A DNA stretch of 64,000 nucleotides, taken from the NCBI GenBank assembly GCA_018335855.1, contig JAGXRM010000019.1, positions 1 to 64,000 on the forward strand. The letters run 5' to 3'. Source of the DNA: Clostridiales bacterium. Lineage in GTDB: Bacteria > Bacillota > Dethiobacteria > Dethiobacterales > Dethiobacteraceae. Below, piece by piece: positions 39,597-47,124 of the stretch (position 1 is its first letter; each line of letters begins with the position of its first letter). The notes beneath the pieces were generated by a model. That model had not been told where the DNA came from. It saw only the letters and a program-made list of their open reading frames with translations, and did no database searches. The translations under genes and the position numbers were made by a program.

Positions 39597-41078
39597 TTAT
39601 GTCTTTTGAATCAATGTATGTAGCAATTCCAAATCAAGGTGGTCACGGACAGCCTGGGCCAGCAGGCGGTATGAGCTTTCCCGCCGCTGCCGGGCCGAAA
39701 CACCGTCACCGGTCCGTTCAGGTAATCCATGGGCAACACGCACCCGGTTGAGGAACCCTTGCCGGAACTGCGCTGAATCAAACAATCCGTGCAGATACGT
39801 GCCAATTACCCGCCCGTCCCCACTCACCGCCCCGTCCGGCCGCCATACCCCGTCTTCAGCGGCTAAACTGGCAAAGGGCTCTCCGGCCAGCCGTATCGTC
39901 CTTCCCATGTGTATTTCATAGCCTTCCAGTGACTCACCCTCGAACACGGTTTTACCTGTAACGCGGATTGTGGTTTTCTCCGGGTAAAATTCCGTCTCCA
40001 CCGGCAGCAGACCCAATCCCTGGCCGTCACCGCCGGTACCGTCACTGCCGGATGGGTCTGTAATTCGTTCCCCCAGCATCTGGTAACCGCCGCAGACACC
40101 GACCACGTAGGAGCCGTGTTGCTGGGCGGCCAATATTGTCTCCGCCAGGCCGCTGTCCCTGAGAAACGCCAAGTCTGCCAGGGTATTTTTTGTTCCCGGC
40201 AAAATAATCAGATGAGGAGAGCCAATCTCACCCGGTCGGTCCGTGAACCGCAGCGATACCCCCTCTTCTTCGGCCAAAACGTGGTAATCGGTAAAGTTGG
40301 CAATCCGCGGCAGGGTAATGACAACAACTTGCAGCTCCCCCGCTCCGTTCCCGGCCCCGCGCAGGCCCAGAGAATCCTCGGCGGGCAACGACAGCTTCTC
40401 CAGAAACGGCACCACCCCTACAATGGGCTTGCCTGTAATTTCTGTTAGCTGGTCTAAACCGGGCTGCAGCCTTTCCTTAATTCCCCGGAACTTATTAATG
40501 ATCACACCCTGCACCCGGTTTCGTTCATCATCGGTAAGAAGGGCCAGTGTACCTACCACGGCGGCAAACACTCCGCCGCGGTCTATGTCGGCAGCCAAAA
40601 GTACAGGAGCATCCGCAGCAGCAGCCAATCTCATATTTACGATGTCATGGTCACGGAGATTCACTTCGGCCGGGCTGCCTGCCCCTTCTATCACCACCAC
40701 ATCAAACTGTCGGCGCAGCTTTGTCAAAGCTTTAAGCACGGCGGGAAACGCTTCCTGTTTGTATTCCTGATAGTGTGCTGCAGACATATCGCCCACCGGT
40801 TTCCCGCTGACAATAACCTGGCAGTCCGTATCCGACACCGGCTTGAGTAACACAGGATTCATCTCCACCATCGGTGCCACCCTGGCCGCCTCAGCCTGCA
40901 TCACCTGAGCCCAGCCAATCTCACCGCCGGGGACAACCATGGCATTTAGGGCCATATTCTGCGCCTTAAACGGTGCCACAGTATACCCTTCCTCACTGAG
41001 CCAGCGGCAGAGCGCAGCGCAAAGGATACTTTTGCCTGTGTCCGATGAGGTGCCCTGCACCATAATCACAGCACCCAT
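39597..41078 (-). CDS. cbiP: Cobyric acid synthase (canonical-like copy)
   Basis: Glutamine- and ATP-dependent amidation of adenosylcobyrinate a,c-diamide at four carboxylates. 493 residues: MVQGTSSDTGKSILCAALCR, VAPFKAQNMALN, GGEIGWAQVMQAEAA, MNPVLLKPVSDTDCQVIV, EGAGSPAEVNLRDHDIVNM, and in the glutaminase domain VVGVCGGYQMLGERI (nucleophile Cys) and YEIHMGRT. It retains the Gln of the conserved QNM-LN motif. Starts one base from the stop of the neighbouring paralogue. Confidence 0.93.
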   Translation of the reverse strand: MGAVIMVQGTSSDTGKSILCAALCRWLSEEGYTVAPFKAQNMALNAMVVPGGEIGWAQVMQAEAARVAPMVEMNPVLLKPVSDTDCQVIVSGKPVGDMSAAHYQEYKQEAFPAVLKALTKLRRQFDVVVIEGAGSPAEVNLRDHDIVNMRLAAAADAPVLLAADIDRGGVFAAVVGTLALLTDDERNRVQGVIINKFRGIKERLQPGLDQLTEITGKPIVGVVPFLEKLSLPAEDSLGLRGAGNGAGELQVVVITLPRIANFTDYHVLAEEEGVSLRFTDRPGEIGSPHLIILPGTKNTLADLAFLRDSGLAETILAAQQHGSYVVGVCGGYQMLGERITDPSGSDGTGGDGQGLGLLPVETEFYPEKTTIRVTGKTVFEGESLEGYEIHMGRTIRLAGEPFASLAAEDGVWRPDGAVSGDGRVIGTYLHGLFDSAQFRQGFLNRVRVAHGLPERTGDGVSARQRRESSYRLLAQAVRDHLDLELLHTLIQKT

Positions 41079-42613
41079 CAGCTCTCACCCCGCTTCGGCC
41101 CGTTCAGGCCCATCATCGCATAAATTGCATCCATGTCCAGCGAGGCCCGGACATGGTCTGCCAAACGGTCAATTGGTTTGACAACAGCGTCTTCCGACGG
41201 TGCCAGGGCTACCCAGCCCTTACGCAATCGCAGTGTATTAAGCCAGGTCCGTCTGAAAACCGGTTTATCAAAAACGCCGTGCAGATAGGTACCCCAGATG
41301 TTTCCGCAAGGGGAAACGGCGCCTTCAGGAATTTTATCCCCTGAGTCCGTAATGAGCTGAAACGCAGGCAGGCACCCGGTATGACGCTCTGTCTGCCCCA
41401 TATGTATTTCGTACCCTTCTACCAGGCAGCCCTCAGCAAAGGGCAACAGTCCTTCAGCCCGGGCACGGGTAACCCTTTTTTCGGGGAAAAAGTTTGTATC
41501 GGTAGCCAGTAAACCAAGCCCGCCGGTAACAAGAGGAGCCCCTCCTGATTCCCGGCCATCGGGGTCACTCAGTGTCTGCCCCAGAATCTGATATCCGCCA
41601 CAAATTCCCACCACAGGCACGCCACGGGCAGCCAGATTTATGACAGCCGCAGCCAACCCCGTTTCTTGCAGAAAAGTGAGATCGTTCATACTGTTTTTCG
41701 TGCCGGGAATAATGACGGCGTCCATATCGGCGGACAATTGCTCCGGGTCATTGCAATAGTGAAGCGAAACATCACTTTCAGCTGCCAATGCATCCAAATC
41801 GGTAAAATTTGAGATGTGGGGCAGGCGAAGCACTGCGATGCGCAACTGGTTTTCCCCATGATTCAGCGGTACCTCTATCCTCTCCAGCGCCACACCATCT
41901 TCTTCAGCCAGACCTGTATCGGCTACGTAAGGCACTACACCGATTACTGGCCTGCCGGTCCGTTCTTCCACCACATCTAACCCTGGTTGCAATAACTCCA
42001 GATCACCGCGGAATTTATTAAAGATAAATCCCGCTACCCGGGCATTGTCTTCTGCGGGGAGAAGCATCATTGTTCCAACTACCGCAGCCAGCGCACCGCC
42101 CTGATTCACATCTCCCACCAGTAAGACTGGTGCGTCTGCCAGGTGAGCCACTTTCATGTTGGCCACATCCTGTGCGGCTAAATTAATTTCTGCAGGGCTT
42201 CCCGCACCTTCAATGACCAGAATTTCATAGTCTTTGTGTAATATACTGAGTGACTCCCCGATGATATTCATACAAAGAGCGACATATTCTTCTTCCGTCC
42301 TGGTTGAGTAATCCATATCGCCATGGACCTGGCCCCGGACAATAACCTGCGCCTGTCCTTTTCCTTTGGGCTTAACTAAAATAGGATTCATATGTACAGT
42401 GGCCTCAATCCCGGCCGCCTCAGCCTGCTCTCCCTGGGCACGGCCAATTTCGCCACCGTCTGCAGTCACATGGGAGTTCAGTGCCATGTTCCAGCTTTTA
42501 AACGGCGCCACACGGTAGCCCTCCCGGGCAAAAATACGGCAGAGCGCCGCAGCAATCACACTCTTGCCCACATGTGAAGCTGTCCCTTGAATCATAATTG
42601 TTTTCGCCATCAT
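41078..42613 (-). CDS. Cobyric acid synthase paralogue, diverged
   Basis: A second CbiP-family protein, 511 residues, first gene of the cobalamin operon. The domains are the same: P-loop MIQGTASHVGKSVIAAALCR, MNPILVKPKGKGQAQVIV, EGAGSPAEINLAAQDVANM, glutaminase VVGICGGYQILGQTL and YEIHMGQT, GTYLHGVFDKP. It differs at conserved positions: FKSWNMALNSHV, with Trp where the other copy and most family members have Gln, and KPKGKG where most have Lys-Pro-x-Ser/Thr-Asp. All glutaminase residues are present, so it is likely active, but its substrate may differ (another amidated tetrapyrrole, or a subset of the four amides). AAAGGA and a double ATG mark the start. Confidence 0.85.
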   Translation of the reverse strand: MMAKTIMIQGTASHVGKSVIAAALCRIFAREGYRVAPFKSWNMALNSHVTADGGEIGRAQGEQAEAAGIEATVHMNPILVKPKGKGQAQVIVRGQVHGDMDYSTRTEEEYVALCMNIIGESLSILHKDYEILVIEGAGSPAEINLAAQDVANMKVAHLADAPVLLVGDVNQGGALAAVVGTMMLLPAEDNARVAGFIFNKFRGDLELLQPGLDVVEERTGRPVIGVVPYVADTGLAEEDGVALERIEVPLNHGENQLRIAVLRLPHISNFTDLDALAAESDVSLHYCNDPEQLSADMDAVIIPGTKNSMNDLTFLQETGLAAAVINLAARGVPVVGICGGYQILGQTLSDPDGRESGGAPLVTGGLGLLATDTNFFPEKRVTRARAEGLLPFAEGCLVEGYEIHMGQTERHTGCLPAFQLITDSGDKIPEGAVSPCGNIWGTYLHGVFDKPVFRRTWLNTLRLRKGWVALAPSEDAVVKPIDRLADHVRASLDMDAIYAMMGLNGPKRGES

Positions 42614-42637: not shown

Positions 42638-42666
42638 TTGACAAAAAACCGGGCGGAGAGTAAAAT
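42638..42666 (+). promoter_or_regulatory. Consensus promoter of the ferredoxin gene
   Basis: TTGACA (42638-42643), 17 bases, TAAAAT (42661-42666). It lies in the 94-base gap between the cobalamin operon start (42613, minus) and the ferredoxin start (42708, plus). Confidence 0.85.
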
Positions 42667-42670
42667 ATAC

Positions 42671-42687
42671 ATACCCACTAGGGGTAT
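42671..42687 (+). promoter_or_regulatory. CsoR/RcnR-family-like operator
   Basis: ATACCC-ACTAG-GGGTAT, a palindrome with C/G runs flanked by AT-rich DNA, just downstream of the -10 box where a repressor would block transcription. The form (TACCC ... GGGTA) matches operators of CsoR-type regulators that sense Cu, Ni/Co or persulfide. No CsoR-family gene is in the window. It may also act on the divergent cbiP-led operon, whose promoter must lie in this gap. Confidence 0.55.
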
Positions 42688-42707
42688 AATATTAGGGAGG
42701 CTCTACT

Positions 42708-42896
42708 ATGAAAAAATTTGCCATTAATCCGAATAACTGTGATAAGTCTCCGGGCTGTCCAGTCCGCAGGGAATGTCCCAGCCACGCTATTTTGGAAATG
42801 GACGGCGTTTACTATATTGATATGGACGTCTGCCGCGGTTGCGGGCTTTGCGTAAAGGTTTGCCCGAGAAATGCTGTGGAAGAAAGTGCATCCTGA
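42708..42896 (+). CDS. Small ferredoxin-like 4Fe-4S protein with variant first cluster
   Basis: A 62-residue protein; GGGAGG lies nine bases before the ATG. The second motif is classical, VCRGCGLCVKVCP (Cys42, 45, 48, 52). The first is unusual: NCDKSPGCPVRRECP, with Cys11, Cys17 and Cys23 spaced x5-x5 instead of x2-x2. One normal [4Fe-4S] cluster and a second of altered geometry, or none, are likely. Probably an electron carrier. It lies divergent from the cobalamin operon and 66 bases ahead of the TrkA-C membrane protein, with which it may be co-transcribed. Confidence 0.85.
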   Translation: MKKFAINPNNCDKSPGCPVRRECPSHAILEMDGVYYIDMDVCRGCGLCVKVCPRNAVEESAS

Positions 42897-42962: not shown

Positions 42963-43637
42963 ATGACCAATGAACTTATGCTGCTTTTTCTCGTGGCTAC
43001 TCTGCTTTTTCTCATCCTGGAAGTGGCGGCGGTTATGCTCCGCCTGACCGGCCTGGACCGGGATACGGCCCGCTTCCAGGCCATTTCCATTATTACAGCC
43101 TCGGGCTATACCACATCGGAGTCGGAACTGGTTGCCCGCCATCCGGTACGCCGTAAAATTGCTATGTTTCTAATGATTTCCGGCACCATCGCCCTGGCCT
43201 TTATCATTTCTATCCTGGTTCGTATTTTAGGCCGTGGCTTGTCGGGACCCGAAGAAGTATTTTCGGCCGTAACCGCCCTGCTGGTTATCTACTTGCTCTT
43301 TCATAATCCAATTATGGCCGGCATGGTGGACCGCTACCTGGAACGGCAGCTATTGAAACAGCCTTATCTGTCCCGCCGCAGTGTGGAAGAACTATTAAAG
43401 CTGGATGAAAACTACAGTATTGCCGAAGTACATCTAAGTAACCCTGACTCCCATTGGTTCGGTAAAACACTCTCAGAAATTCGTCCGCGGGACCAAGGGA
43501 TTATGATCCTTTCCATCCGCCGGAACGGCAACGTGATCCGGGCGCCGCTGGGCACAGACGACTTGCGTCAGGGAGACATATTACTGGTTTACGGCCGCCC
43601 AAAATATATTTCTCAATTAATCGAACGTGTCACATAA
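42963..43637 (+). CDS. Membrane protein with C-terminal TrkA-C (RCK_C) domain
   Basis: A 224-residue protein with three membrane segments (about 5-27, 65-88, 98-116) and a cytosolic TrkA-C domain (about 140-222: FGKTLSEIRPRDQGIMILSI, LRQGDILLVYG). FQAISIITASGYTTSESEL lies between segments 1 and 2 and resembles a selectivity-filter-like turn, but a channel role is not shown. TrkA-C domains bind small ligands such as c-di-AMP in transport proteins. Its 3' end overlaps the 3' end of the opposite ABC ATPase gene by 21 bases. Confidence 0.78.
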   Translation: MTNELMLLFLVATLLFLILEVAAVMLRLTGLDRDTARFQAISIITASGYTTSESELVARHPVRRKIAMFLMISGTIALAFIISILVRILGRGLSGPEEVFSAVTALLVIYLLFHNPIMAGMVDRYLERQLLKQPYLSRRSVEELLKLDENYSIAEVHLSNPDSHWFGKTLSEIRPRDQGIMILSIRRNGNVIRAPLGTDDLRQGDILLVYGRPKYISQLIERVT

Positions 43638-44894
43638 ACTGAATTGTTCTGCCAAAGCCCGGTAAAGCCGGGCTTTTTCATTGACGATGGAGCCCCTGGT
43701 CCTTAGCACCCCAAGTAATCGCAAACCCTCTCCCCCGGTAAAATCCCGATTCCTGTCTGGATTCTCCTCCAGAATAAATAAGGATTTTCCCAGATCCACT
43801 GCGAATCCCGCTGCTTCCAGGTTGCGTATATTGCCGTTCCCCAAAGGTGCTTCGGCCAACACCACAGCGTCTGCCTGCCGGATCATTGCCAGATTTTCAT
43901 CATGTCTTTGCTCGGATATCCCGGAAAAAGGAGCCTCAGCCACCACAGATATACCCATTGCCCGGGCCGCCTCCCAATCACTGTCACCGACATTGAGAAC
44001 GCCTACCGTTACGGTGTATCCCGCATCTCTCAAATCACGGAGCATCTCACCGCCGCTGCCTCCACCGGCCAGGACATGTACTCTTTTCTTCTCCGGTTCA
44101 GCAACCACATTGTCCTTTGTTACAGGCAACAACGAAACAGTAGGGGTGCCCAGTACAGGGTGGGGAGTCACCAGCACATGCGTTCTATATACGTTGCCGA
44201 TGTTTTTATCAGTCAGAACTTCAGCCGGGGAGCCGCTGGCAAAAATCTTTCCATTATTGAGTAACAACAGCATCTGGCAGTAATACGCTGCCAGGTTCAA
44301 GTCATGTAAGACGGCTACTACTGTGACACCATGGGTCACACTCAGCCGTTTAACTAGATCAAGGATTTCCTGCTGGTAGCCGATATCAAGATGGTTTGTA
44401 GGTTCATCCAGGAGAAGTACCTTTGGTTCCTGGGCCAGCGCCCGGGCGATCATTACCCGTTGCCGTTCCCCGCCGCTCAATTCGCTGAGCCTTCGCTCGC
44501 GCAAATGGGTGCACCCTGTCATTTCCATCACCTGACGGACGATTTCCCTGTCTTCCATTGTTTCCGACTGAAAACGACCCAGAAAAGGCGCCCTACCCAT
44601 CAATACAATCTCTTCCACCGTAAAAAGATAACCTGCATCGCCGTCCTGGGTGACCACTGCCATCCGCCTGGCTAATTCCTTTTGTGAAAACGACGCCAAT
44701 TCCCGGCCGTCAAGATAAATGCTTCCCCCCGATGGTTTAAGCACACGGCTTATAAGTTTAAGCAGAGTTGTCTTACCGCTCCCGTTGGGGCCGATGATCC
44801 CGGTAAACACCCCTTCGCCCAGAGAAAATGTTGTACTGTCCAGCACGGCGGTTTCACCATATTTAAATGACAGTTGTTTGACGCTAATTTCCAT
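43617..44894 (-). CDS. btuD: Cobalamin-type ABC transporter ATPase with extra C-terminal domain
   Basis: ATP-binding subunit of a FecCD-type importer. Residues 1-255: Walker A IIGPNGSGKTTLLKLIS, VVTQDGDAGYLFTVEEIVLM, signature LSGGERQRVMIARAL, VLLLDEPTNHLD, AVLHDLNLAA. Residues 270-425 are an added domain (VHVLAGGGSGGEMLRDLRDA, VGVLNVGDSDWEAARAMGI, VVLAEAPLGNGN) not found in E. coli BtuD, with a Rossmann-like Gly-rich turn. Vitamin or corrinoid specificity follows from the riboswitch upstream. Ninth base behind btuC. Confidence 0.88.
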   Translation of the reverse strand: MEISVKQLSFKYGETAVLDSTTFSLGEGVFTGIIGPNGSGKTTLLKLISRVLKPSGGSIYLDGRELASFSQKELARRMAVVTQDGDAGYLFTVEEIVLMGRAPFLGRFQSETMEDREIVRQVMEMTGCTHLRERRLSELSGGERQRVMIARALAQEPKVLLLDEPTNHLDIGYQQEILDLVKRLSVTHGVTVVAVLHDLNLAAYYCQMLLLLNNGKIFASGSPAEVLTDKNIGNVYRTHVLVTPHPVLGTPTVSLLPVTKDNVVAEPEKKRVHVLAGGGSGGEMLRDLRDAGYTVTVGVLNVGDSDWEAARAMGISVVAEAPFSGISEQRHDENLAMIRQADAVVLAEAPLGNGNIRNLEAAGFAVDLGKSLFILEENPDRNRDFTGGEGLRLLGVLRTRGSIVNEKARLYRALAEQFSLCDTFD

Positions 44895-44903
44895 ATGGCG
44901 ACC

Positions 44904-45941
44904 TCACAGGCGGATTTCCGTTTTCTTTTTACGCAGCAAATAAATGAAGAACGGCGCACCGACAAAGGCTGTAATAATCCCCACTGGAATTTCTTGCGGC
45001 GCCATTACTGTTCGAGCCACCACATCCGCCCAAATCAGGAATACAGCTCCAACCAGCGCTGAAGCTGGCAAAAGCACACGATGGTCTGGCCCGGTCACAA
45101 TCCTTACGGCATGGGGGATAATCAGACCGACAAAGCCGATCATGCCACTTACGGCAACGGCCGCGGCCGTCACCAGAGATGCTGTAACCAGTAAAATTTT
45201 CTTGGTACTATCCACCTGTACACCGAGATGCAGCGCGGCTTCTTCCCCTAAAAGCAAAATATTTAAATCCCGGGCGTACGCATAAAGAATAACGGAGCCC
45301 ACAGCCAGGTATGGGCCGACAAACCAAAGCTGCGGCCAGGAACGCATCATCAGACCACCGGACAACCAGAAAAATATGCCCTGCATATTTTCCCCGGCCA
45401 GTACCATCAGCAGGGAAATAACAGCACTCAAAAAGCTGGAAATGACCACGCCCGCCAGCAACAGTGTCACCACGGGAACCTGGCCGCCTATTTTTGCTAA
45501 ATTATAGACGAAAAACATAGCCATCAGTGCGCCGATAAATGCAAAAAGCGGAATCATATGGGGAAAATTCAGTTGATAGACCTGTCGGAAAAACAGCGCG
45601 AACGTCGCACCGGCAGCAGCTCCGCTTGACACTCCGATGGTAAACGGATCTGCCAAAGGATTGCGCAGCATCCCCTGATATGTGACACCGGCCAGAGCAA
45701 GAGAAGCACCGACCAACGCCCCCAGAATAACCCGGGGCAACCTAAGATTCCAGATAATAGACACCGTAGACCGGGGAATCTCCGCCAGACCCTCTGGTCC
45801 ACCGGGCCAACCCAGCTTTGCCAGAACAATCTGCAGAGTTACTGCCGGCGGGACGGACGCTGTCCCGATGGCGGTGGCTGCGATAATCGTCAGCAACAAG
45901 GCCGCCAACAAGCCGGCAAAAAGCAGTACGCGCTTGTTCAT
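44904..45941 (-). CDS. btuC: Cobalamin ABC transporter permease (FecCD family)
   Basis: Membrane permease of 345 residues with about ten segments. Signatures: LRLPRVILGALVGASLALAG, GMLRNPLADPFTIGVSSGAA, FFWLSGGLMMRSW, ALHLGV (coupling helix with BtuD), GFVGLIIPHAVRIVTGPDHR. One base separates it from btuF. Regulated by the riboswitch at 46930-47106. Confidence 0.92.
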   Translation of the reverse strand: MNKRVLLFAGLLAALLLTIIAATAIGTASVPPAVTLQIVLAKLGWPGGPEGLAEIPRSTVSIIWNLRLPRVILGALVGASLALAGVTYQGMLRNPLADPFTIGVSSGAAAGATFALFFRQVYQLNFPHMIPLFAFIGALMAMFFVYNLAKIGGQVPVVTLLLAGVVISSFLSAVISLLMVLAGENMQGIFFWLSGGLMMRSWPQLWFVGPYLAVGSVILYAYARDLNILLLGEEAALHLGVQVDSTKKILLVTASLVTAAAVAVSGMIGFVGLIIPHAVRIVTGPDHRVLLPASALVGAVFLIWADVVARTVMAPQEIPVGIITAFVGAPFFIYLLRKKKTEIRL

Positions 45942-45942
45942 A

Positions 45943-46857
45943 TTACTGCCGGTAGAATACAGCGTTCAATTCAGTCAGCCCCTGGGCAACCCGGGGACCT
46001 GGACGGGAAACCAAGTCGCCGTCCACTGTGTAAACCCGTCCGTTTGCAATAGCCTGAAGTCCCTCCCAGGAGGGATTAGCGAAAATTTGCGTAGGATGAG
46101 TCAGGATGATAATGTCGGGATCCAATTCAAATAAAACTTCTTCCGAAAGGAGTAGCCAGCCGTCACCCTGGTTAAAGGCTGCATTGAGTCCACCTGCCGC
46201 CTCAATCATCTCTGAGAGAAACTCACCTGCTCCCACGGTATATAAATAGTCGGTATCCAGCAGGATAAATACTCGCGGACGTAAATCCAGATCAACGCCA
46301 GCAAACTCTCTGCTTACCGCATTCCTGCCACTGTGCACCTCCGCAGCGAACTGTTCCCCTCGATCAGGAACATTGGTCAGACGGGCAATCTCCCTGATAG
46401 CATCTTCAATTTCTGCCAGGCTCTGCGGATCGATAACAACCACGGTTACACCGTTTGCTTCTAACACGTCTAACACTTCCTGGACAGTACTACTTTTGCC
46501 GGCAAGAACTATATCCGGTTCCAGTGCAAGAATTGCCTCCGCGTTTAAGTCATAAAGGCCACCTACATTATCTATAGCCAAAGCCTCTTTCGGGTAATTG
46601 CAGTAAGACGTCACACCAACCACCCGCTCTCCCAGCCCTAAAGCAAATAACGTTTCTGTCAGGCTGGGCATTAATGATACAATGCGCAAAGGTTCTTCAG
46701 TGATTACCACATCTCGTCCTACGTTATCGGTAATTGTCATGGGATAAGGACCAACAGGTGCCACCGGCGCGGTTGGCTGTTGAACTCCGCCGCCGCATCC
46801 GGCAACTATCGAAGCTACCGCGACTATGACAAACAGTACAATCCATCGCTTATTCAT
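45943..46857 (-). CDS. btuF: Cobalamin-binding lipoprotein (BtuF-like)
   Basis: Substrate-binding protein of the importer, 304 residues. The ATG at 46857 starts a lipoprotein signal MNKRWIVLFVIVAVASIVAG followed by Cys, with lipobox Val-Ala-Gly-Cys. PeripBP_2 domain: RIVSLMPSLTETLFALGLGE, VGVTSYCNYP, NVGGLYDLNAEAILALEPDI, with VFILLDTDYLYTVGAGEFLS and LLLSEEVLFELDPDIIILTH. GAGGGGGAAGAG is the ribosome site, placed right after the riboswitch terminator. A longer in-frame extension would run through the riboswitch and is rejected. Confidence 0.92.
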   Translation of the reverse strand: MNKRWIVLFVIVAVASIVAGCGGGVQQPTAPVAPVGPYPMTITDNVGRDVVITEEPLRIVSLMPSLTETLFALGLGERVVGVTSYCNYPKEALAIDNVGGLYDLNAEAILALEPDIVLAGKSSTVQEVLDVLEANGVTVVVIDPQSLAEIEDAIREIARLTNVPDRGEQFAAEVHSGRNAVSREFAGVDLDLRPRVFILLDTDYLYTVGAGEFLSEMIEAAGGLNAAFNQGDGWLLLSEEVLFELDPDIIILTHPTQIFANPSWEGLQAIANGRVYTVDGDLVSRPGPRVAQGLTELNAVFYRQ

Positions 46858-46878
46858 TGTCTCTTCCCCCTCTTCTTT

Positions 46879-46906
46879 AAAAAAAAAACTCAGCGCCCCG
46901 GCTGAG
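46879..46906 (-). terminator. Riboswitch-controlled intrinsic terminator
   Basis: CTCAGC/GCTGAG stem (46889-46906) followed on the minus strand by ten T residues (plus-strand A tract 46879-46888). It lies between the cobalamin aptamer and the btuF ribosome site, so it is the likely off-state of transcription control. Confidence 0.9.
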
Positions 46907-46929
46907 ATTGTACAACGTGCGTCTCCCTT

Positions 46930-47106
46930 CTCCCGAGGATACGTGACATCTGGCAATACAGGCAGGTTTCCTGGCTGCCGATCATCGTCTTGCCGCGCCT
47001 TCCCCCTAACGGAGTGGCCAGTGCGGTGACTCACGGTTTACAGTGGCGGGACCGCTCAGGTTTTACACCTGATTCCCTTTTAACTCCCTAAGGAGCACCC
47101 GTTTAC
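46930..47106 (-). promoter_or_regulatory. Cobalamin riboswitch
   Basis: On the minus strand the conserved B12 box GCCAGGAAACCTGCCTG is present (46978-46962). Upstream lie the expected GGTGCTCC (47100-47093), AAGGGAATCAGGTG, the GCGGTCCCGCCACTGT core and the junction GGGGGAAGGCGCGG. The terminator at 46879-46906 is its expression platform. High adenosylcobalamin or related corrinoid should stop transcription of btuF-btuC-btuD. Confidence 0.95.
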
Positions 47107-47124
47107 CAATATTAAGTTAACTAC

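What the first reader, a model, noticed from the sequence alone, without database searches (positions are those of the whole stretch)
42638..42687. CsoR/RcnR-like operator between the cobalamin operon and a ferredoxin gene
ATACCC-N5-GGGTAT sits directly after a consensus -10 box. Operators of this shape bind CsoR-family metal or persulfide sensors. It lies in the only 94 bases that can hold the promoter of the 18-kb cobalamin operon on the other strand, which lacks a riboswitch of its own. A cobalt- or nickel-sensing RcnR-like protein controlling cobalamin synthesis would make sense, but this is inference.
Basis: partly seen in the sequence, partly recalled or inferred. Interest (0 to 1): 0.6.

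Follow-up and report, generated by a model that had tools for sequence, protein, structure and literature searches.

The report
CsoR-type operator of a nested ferredoxin
The palindrome looks like a genuine on/off site for a CsoR-family repressor: it sits on the promoter of a small ferredoxin gene and is one copy of a regulon, conserved across a family of sulfur-metabolising anaerobes, that looks geared to sulfane-sulfur or iron-sulfur stress rather than to cobalt or nickel control of vitamin B12 synthesis.

Summary
TTGACA-17-TAAAAT (42638-42666) is followed at 42671-42687 by a perfect ATACCC-N5-GGGTAT, a textbook type 2 CsoR operator over the predicted start of the ferredoxin transcript. Exact copies are rare (3 in 2.96 Mb), all at promoters. 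In Dethiobacteraceae the same site precedes all 9 ferredoxin genes found (7 perfect, 2 with one mismatch), 7 of 7 HesB-like selenoproteins, NapH-like Fe-S proteins in at least 10 genomes and CoA-disulfide-reductase/rhodaneses in 5. In 32 of 34 sites read, the downstream gene has a 10-12/12 promoter; the opposite strand rarely does.

The genome has two CsoR proteins. One sits beside copZ with its own, different G/C-tract operator. The other (Cys-His-Cys ligands, no RcnR fingerprint) is the likely binder.

The cobalt/nickel reading is not supported, and the cobalamin operon shows no convincing promoter here. It more likely depends on read-through from the btuFCD cobalamin riboswitch 4.4 kb upstream, with the ferredoxin nested antisense; in two relatives a ferredoxin copy lies antisense between a cobalamin riboswitch and cbiMNQO. 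Binder, effector (persulfide favoured, copper next) and read-through are inferred, not shown.

The parts
42638..42643 (+). -35 box TTGACA of the ferredoxin promoter
   Evidence: conserved with a 17-base spacer in 9 of 9 ferredoxin loci
42661..42666 (+). -10 box TAAAAT of the ferredoxin promoter
42671..42687 (.). operator ATACCC-ACTAG-GGGTAT, over the predicted transcription start of the ferredoxin gene
   Evidence: family-wide conservation
42694..42700 (+). Shine-Dalgarno AGGGAGG of the ferredoxin gene
   Evidence: direct reading
42708..42896 (+). fer: 62-aa 4Fe-4S ferredoxin, most likely direct target of the operator
   Evidence: Pfam Fer4 family hits; orthologs in 7 relatives
42963..43637 (+). 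membrane protein with a C-terminal TrkA-C domain, probably co-transcribed with fer; its 3' end overlaps btuD by 21 bases
   Evidence: same neighbour in G005, G010 and G012
41078..42613 (-). cobQ/cbiP-like first gene of the cobalamin operon, divergent from fer
   Evidence: Pfam GATase_3 + CbiA; rest of operon
43617..44894 (-). btuD-like ABC ATPase
   Evidence: Pfam
44904..45941 (-). btuC-like FecCD permease
   Evidence: Pfam
45943..47034 (-). btuF-like periplasmic binding protein (the listed ORF start overlaps the riboswitch; the true start is probably below 46889)
46944..47117 (-). cobalamin riboswitch RF00174, proposed to govern btuFCD and, by read-through antisense to fer, the cobalamin operon
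   Evidence: 109.2 bits
46889..46906 (-). terminator hairpin of the riboswitch expression platform

Best explanation
The palindrome is the operator of an orphan CsoR-family repressor ('type A', encoded elsewhere at G000:C7:46835-47077 between a 6S RNA gene and mgtE). Without its effector the repressor sits over the start site of a strong sigma-A-type promoter and blocks transcription of fer and probably the adjoining TrkA-C gene; with its effector it lets go. The same operator-promoter unit controls a HesB-like selenoprotein and a NapH-like Fe-S/flavin protein in this genome, and CoA-disulfide reductase-rhodanese(-TusA-DsrE2) fusions in relatives, so the most likely effector is a reactive sulfane-sulfur (persulfide/polysulfide) or thiol-redox signal, with Cu(I) second. 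The divergent cobalamin operon is not the direct target: it most likely lacks its own promoter here and is reached by read-through from the btuFCD cobalamin riboswitch, so that fer is nested antisense inside a B12-controlled transcription unit and the two units may oppose each other. Shown by sequence: operator, promoter, conservation, regulon membership, CsoR residues, gene order. Inferred: which protein binds, the effector, read-through and mutual interference.
For: The site matches the published CsoR type 2 consensus ATATACCCCTNAGGGGTATAT with N5 and the 5'-TAC-X9-GTA-3' repeat (PMC3902906). There are 28 exact sites against 6 reversed-pattern controls in 20 family genomes. All 9 fer genes of the family carry it (7 exact, 2 with one mismatch), starting about 30-45 bases before the ATG, behind TTGAC(A/T)-17-TANNNT-like promoters. 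In 34 sites read, 32 have a 10-12/12 promoter towards the target gene with the operator mostly 0-8 bases after the -10; opposite strands score 6-8 in 27 of 34. Targets: HesB-like selenoproteins 7/7, NapH-like proteins in at least 10 genomes, CoADR-rhodaneses in 5. A CoA persulfide reductase of that type is a CstR target in E. faecalis (PMC9405070). Type A CsoR was found in 16 of 20 genomes, with C-H-C in 16/16 but Tyr before Cys in 0/16. The copZ-linked CsoR and many copA genes have a different operator. The genome lacking any CsoR (G007) has no exact site, and the near-match of it that was read lies inside a gene. Read-through: riboswitch only before btuF, no strong terminator to cobQ, no promoter above shuffles on the cobalamin strand, and the G013/G017 riboswitch-antisense fer-cbiMNQO order.
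Against: No binding or expression data exist. The type A protein keeps the full Cu(I) ligand triad, which CstR lacks, so copper cannot be excluded. In G005, which lacks the copZ-type CsoR, a copA gene carries the palindrome, and in G012 a copA follows the HesB gene. G013 and G019 have sites but no CsoR was detected (both about 93% complete, fragmented). G016 has type A but no site verified at a promoter. Type A genes have no operator of their own, unusual for CsoR. In this window a 9/12 promoter can be drawn on the cobalamin strand ending at the operator, so dual control is not excluded here. The sister species G001 lacks a clear fer ortholog, so this locus could not be tested there.
Confidence: 0.6

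Rival explanations
1. Copper regulon: the type A CsoR is a Cu(I) sensor, and the operator turns on Fe-S spare parts (ferredoxin, HesB, NapH-like) when Cu(I) damages Fe-S clusters.
For: Cys-His-Cys triad and second-shell Glu/Asp conserved in 16/16; closest solved structure is Geobacillus CsoR 4m1p; operator shape equals the S. lividans Cu-CsoR operator (PMC3902906); copA of G005 has the site.
Against: A separate copZ-linked CsoR with Tyr-Cys and its own G/C-tract operator serves csoR-copZ and copA in most genomes, including a copA of this one. Tyr at position A is lost in type A. CoADR-rhodanese-TusA-DsrE2 targets point to sulfane sulfur.
Confidence: 0.22
2. One reading: a Co/Ni-sensing RcnR-like protein binds here and controls the cobalamin operon.
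For: The fer/operator unit always lies beside cobalamin or cobalt genes (cbiP/cobQ, cbiX, cbiM); a weak 9/12 promoter on the cobalamin strand ends at the operator in this window; InrS (Ni) is the second-best structural match of type A; the Cys/His pattern alone does not predict the metal (PMC4235346).
Against: The operator is type 2, not the RcnR type 1 site; no RcnR fingerprint (Z is Cys in 16/16, N-terminal His in 5/16); no promoter above shuffles on the cobalamin strand in 9 loci; in G005 cbiM has its own riboswitch beyond the operator; no other identified site precedes a cobalt or nickel gene.
Confidence: 0.06
3. Dual control: one operator occupied by CsoR represses both fer and the divergent cobalamin operon, whatever the effector.
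For: Only 94 bases separate the start codons; TTTTCA-17-TATTAT on the minus strand ends at the operator.
Against: The minus-strand promoter is not conserved in the five relatives with the same cobQ-fer or cbiX-fer divergence (7-9/12, within the shuffled range), and its -35 would lie in the fer start codon.
Confidence: 0.15

Closest known systems
CsoR type 2 operators (Streptomyces lividans csoR/copZA; Staphylococcus aureus copA/copX)
   Same: ATACCC-type arms, N4-5 spacer, TAC-X9-GTA repeat (PMC3902906, PMC5947656)
   Different: Those drive copper resistance genes; here targets are a ferredoxin, a HesB-like selenoprotein and NapH-like proteins, and the copper genes mostly use another operator
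CstR / YrkD persulfide-sensing repressors
   Same: CsoR-family fold, two conserved cysteines, regulon containing CoA persulfide reductase/rhodanese genes (PMC9405070, PMC9918477)
   Different: Type A keeps the His ligand that CstR lacks (the latter from own knowledge of CstR); it is an orphan far from its targets and not beside rhodanese or sqr genes
TTHA1953 of Thermus thermophilus
   Same: Second CsoR paralog beside a true copper CsoR, with scattered sulfur-related targets and a distinct operator (PMC10318464)
   Different: Its operator TACNNTACNNNNGTANNGTA lacks G/C tracts; its targets are Sox genes
Antisense-acting riboswitches, noncontiguous operons and excludons (Listeria rli39/pocR; S. 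aureus men locus)
   Same: A cobalamin riboswitch transcript runs antisense to a neighbouring gene; an operon may contain an oppositely oriented gene (PMC7154746, PMC9943018)
   Different: Here sense genes (btuFCD, cbiMNQO, cobQ operon) and the antisense, separately repressed ferredoxin would share one unit; no transcript data yet

Membership tests
CsoR-family type 2 operator | two G/C tracts with short spacer flanked by 5'-TAC-X9-GTA-3' | tested here: met
   ATACCCACTAGGGGTAT at 42671-42687
CsoR-family type 2 operator | overlaps promoter or start site of a regulated gene and is conserved | tested here: met
CsoR-family type 2 operator | bound by a CsoR-family protein | not testable with these tools
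   CsoR-family proteins exist in the genome; binding needs an experiment
RcnR operator (type 1) | TACT-G6-N-AGTA | tested here: not met
   against PMC3902906
RcnR | His-Cys-His-His fingerprint | tested here: not met
   Z is Cys in 16/16 type A and 11/11 other CsoR proteins
Cu(I)-CsoR (for the type A protein) | Cys-His-Cys ligands plus second-shell Tyr and Glu | tested here: not met
   C-H-C 16/16 and Glu/Asp 16/16, but Tyr 0/16
CstR (for the type A protein) | two Cys with the Cu-ligand His replaced | tested here: not met
   His conserved 16/16; that CstR lacks it is from own knowledge
CstR-like function | persulfide releases repressor; regulon of persulfide-clearing genes | tested here: inconclusive
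   CoADR-rhodanese targets in 5 genomes; chemistry not testable here
Noncontiguous operon | one transcript through an oppositely oriented gene | not testable with these tools
   gene order, missing terminator and missing promoter fit; needs RT-PCR or long-read RNA-seq

The most novel reading that the evidence does not exclude
A two-input switch: fer, repressed by a sulfane-sulfur-sensing CsoR paralog, is nested antisense in a cobalamin-riboswitch-controlled noncontiguous operon, so that B12 shortage (read-through) and persulfide stress (fer transcription) oppose each other. This would couple corrinoid supply to reactive-sulfur and Fe-S stress in Dethiobacteraceae.
Probability: 0.2. Interest if true: 0.75.

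Novelty: new member of a known kind. Interest (0 to 1): 0.48.

Why it matters
It defines a testable, family-wide CsoR regulon outside the classical copper, nickel and cobalt roles: a small ferredoxin, a HesB-like selenoprotein of unknown function, a NapH-like electron-transfer protein and CoA-persulfide-type reductases. That gives the selenoprotein and the ferredoxin a likely physiological context (reactive sulfur or Fe-S stress) in anaerobes related to Dethiobacter. It also points to a conserved arrangement, a repressed gene antisense inside B12-riboswitch units, where opposing transcription could be tested directly.

Tried and rejected
RcnR/Co-Ni control was considered and demoted (operator type, fingerprint, no cobalt/nickel targets). 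Chance palindrome rejected; note that with two mismatches allowed the motif would be no more frequent than chance. Terminator reading of the palindrome (one search lists it as terminator-like on the minus strand) rejected: only 3 G-C pairs and a weak T tract, while its position behind a promoter is conserved. Extension outside the family: HesB-like selenoproteins of other families of the class lack the site, except one 11/12 case in G048. Some exact sites are not promoters: G003:C34 lies inside a long ORF and G005:C51 has no clear target. One-mismatch sites in G007 and G011 are at control level. Literature searches for a CsoR regulon with HesB or ferredoxin found no paper in the held library. 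Searches failed on coordinates, and one search was an empty script.

Full report
Observation. The sequence at 42638-42687 is as described: TTGACA, 17 bases, TAAAAT, then after four bases ATACCCACTAGGGGTAT. The exact pattern occurs once in the window and never in 100 dinucleotide-preserving shuffles; with two mismatches allowed it would be no more than chance. In the whole genome (2.96 Mb, 60 contigs) there are three exact 17-mers and no reversed-pattern control hits. All three lie just upstream of genes: fer in the window, a HesB-like protein with an in-frame TGA at the conserved GGFG-U-GGP position, and a NapH-like Fe-S protein with a C-terminal FAD/NAD domain.

Direction. The promoter next to the palindrome points to fer, a 62-aa 4Fe-4S protein. 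It scores 11/12 and is the best in the region, and the operator covers the expected start site. On the cobalamin strand a 9/12 match exists. But over nine fer loci (this one and eight in seven relatives) the cobalamin side scores only 7-9/12, the range of shuffled sequence, while the fer side scores 10-11/12 with a 17-base spacer in all nine.

Relatives. The genome belongs to a Dethiobacter-like family: contigs of the family members carrying fer are labelled mostly as Dethiobacter sp. MAGs. fer orthologs occur in G004, G005, G010, G012, G013, G017 (two copies) and G019. Counting the window, seven of the nine genes have a perfect ATACCC-N4/5-GGGTAT; the two others (G013 and the second G017 copy) have ATACCCTATACTGGTAT, one mismatch. 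Over 20 family genomes there are 28 exact N5 sites against 6 controls.

Regulon. Sites were read one by one. They precede HesB-like selenoproteins (7 of 7 of this clade, one of them with one mismatch; NCBIfam IscA/HesB), NapH-like Fe-S proteins in at least ten genomes, CoA-disulfide reductase-rhodanese proteins in five (some fused to TusA and DsrE2), and singly a copA (G005), an FmdB zinc ribbon (G012) and a second small ferredoxin (G002). For 34 sites the best promoter towards the target is 10-12/12 in 32 cases, usually with the operator 0-8 bases after the -10; the opposite direction gives 6-8 in 27 cases. This is a one-directional repressor design.

Regulator. The genome has two CsoR-family proteins. 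The copZ-linked one has Tyr-Cys...His...Cys, the full copper fingerprint, and its own promoter and many copA promoters carry a different, longer G/C-tract site. The other, here called type A, follows a 6S RNA gene and precedes mgtE and a ccdA-like gene. It has Cys-His-Cys in 16 of 16 relatives, never the Tyr, always the Glu/Asp, no conserved N-terminal His. Closest solved structures are Geobacillus CsoR and InrS. Genomes with only type A (G001, G003, G004, G005, G017) have sites; the genome with no CsoR (G007) has no exact site, and its near-match that was read lies in coding sequence; the genome with only the copZ type (G011) has none exact. G013 and G019 have sites without a detected CsoR, possibly through incompleteness. 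The link between type A and the palindrome is thus correlative.

Effector. The fingerprint does not fix the metal (PMC4235346). The targets favour sulfane sulfur: CoA persulfide reductase-rhodanese is a CstR target in Enterococcus (PMC9405070). Copper remains the main rival because the ligand triad is intact and one copA has the site. A Co/Ni sensor is least likely: the operator is type 2, and RcnR uses type 1 (PMC3902906).

Cobalamin side. fer lies beside cobalamin or cobalt genes at every locus examined: cobQ/cbiP (G000, G004, G010, G017, G019), cbiX (G012), cbiM (G005, G013 and the second G017 copy). In the window, btuFCD with a cobalamin riboswitch lies upstream of the cobalamin operon on the same strand; btuD overlaps the 3' end of the TrkA-C gene, and no strong terminator was found between btuD and cobQ. 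In G013 and G017 a fer copy lies antisense between a cobalamin riboswitch with its terminator and cbiMNQO, with no convincing gene for that riboswitch to control before fer. The simplest reading is that riboswitch transcripts read through fer in antisense. Noncontiguous operons and antisense-acting cobalamin riboswitches are known (PMC7154746, PMC9943018). This step is inferred from gene order only.

Verdict. A real, conserved CsoR-type operator of a ferredoxin gene, member of a newly outlined regulon; the cobalt/nickel-to-cobalamin idea is not supported; the nested, riboswitch-antisense arrangement is the most interesting lead.

Noticed in passing
L104 1459-4756 (G017) and L115 1276-4573 (G013): A ferredoxin copy lies antisense between a cobalamin riboswitch plus terminator and cbiMNQO, so the riboswitch seems to act through an oppositely oriented gene.
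   Followed up: partly
G000:C37:124211-124492 (L008), L179, L180, L182, L082, L097, L214: HesB-like genes with an in-frame TGA at the conserved GGFG-U-GGP position, apparently selenoproteins, all with the CsoR-type operator.
   Followed up: partly
L006 4524-4705: A 6S RNA gene (RF00013, 93.4 bits) directly precedes the type A csoR gene; several relatives show similar sequence upstream of csoR.
   Followed up: no
L002, L071-L074, L076-L078, L080, L081 upstream regions; copA loci L185, L186, L188-L191, L203: The copZ-linked CsoR promoter and many copA promoters share a distinct C/G-tract site such as CCACCCCCCGGGGGTAGGGGG, a candidate copper CsoR operator.
   Followed up: partly
G008:C64:15630, G009:C78:7870, G015:C28:39092 (L261): ATACCCCGAGGAGGTAT, one mismatch from the operator and overlapping a ribosome-binding site, lies just downstream of type A csoR, in L261 before what looks like a ccdA gene.
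   Followed up: partly
window 46944-47117 (-) and 43617-43637: Cobalamin riboswitch before btuFCD, and convergent btuD and TrkA-C genes overlapping by 21 bases.
   Followed up: yes
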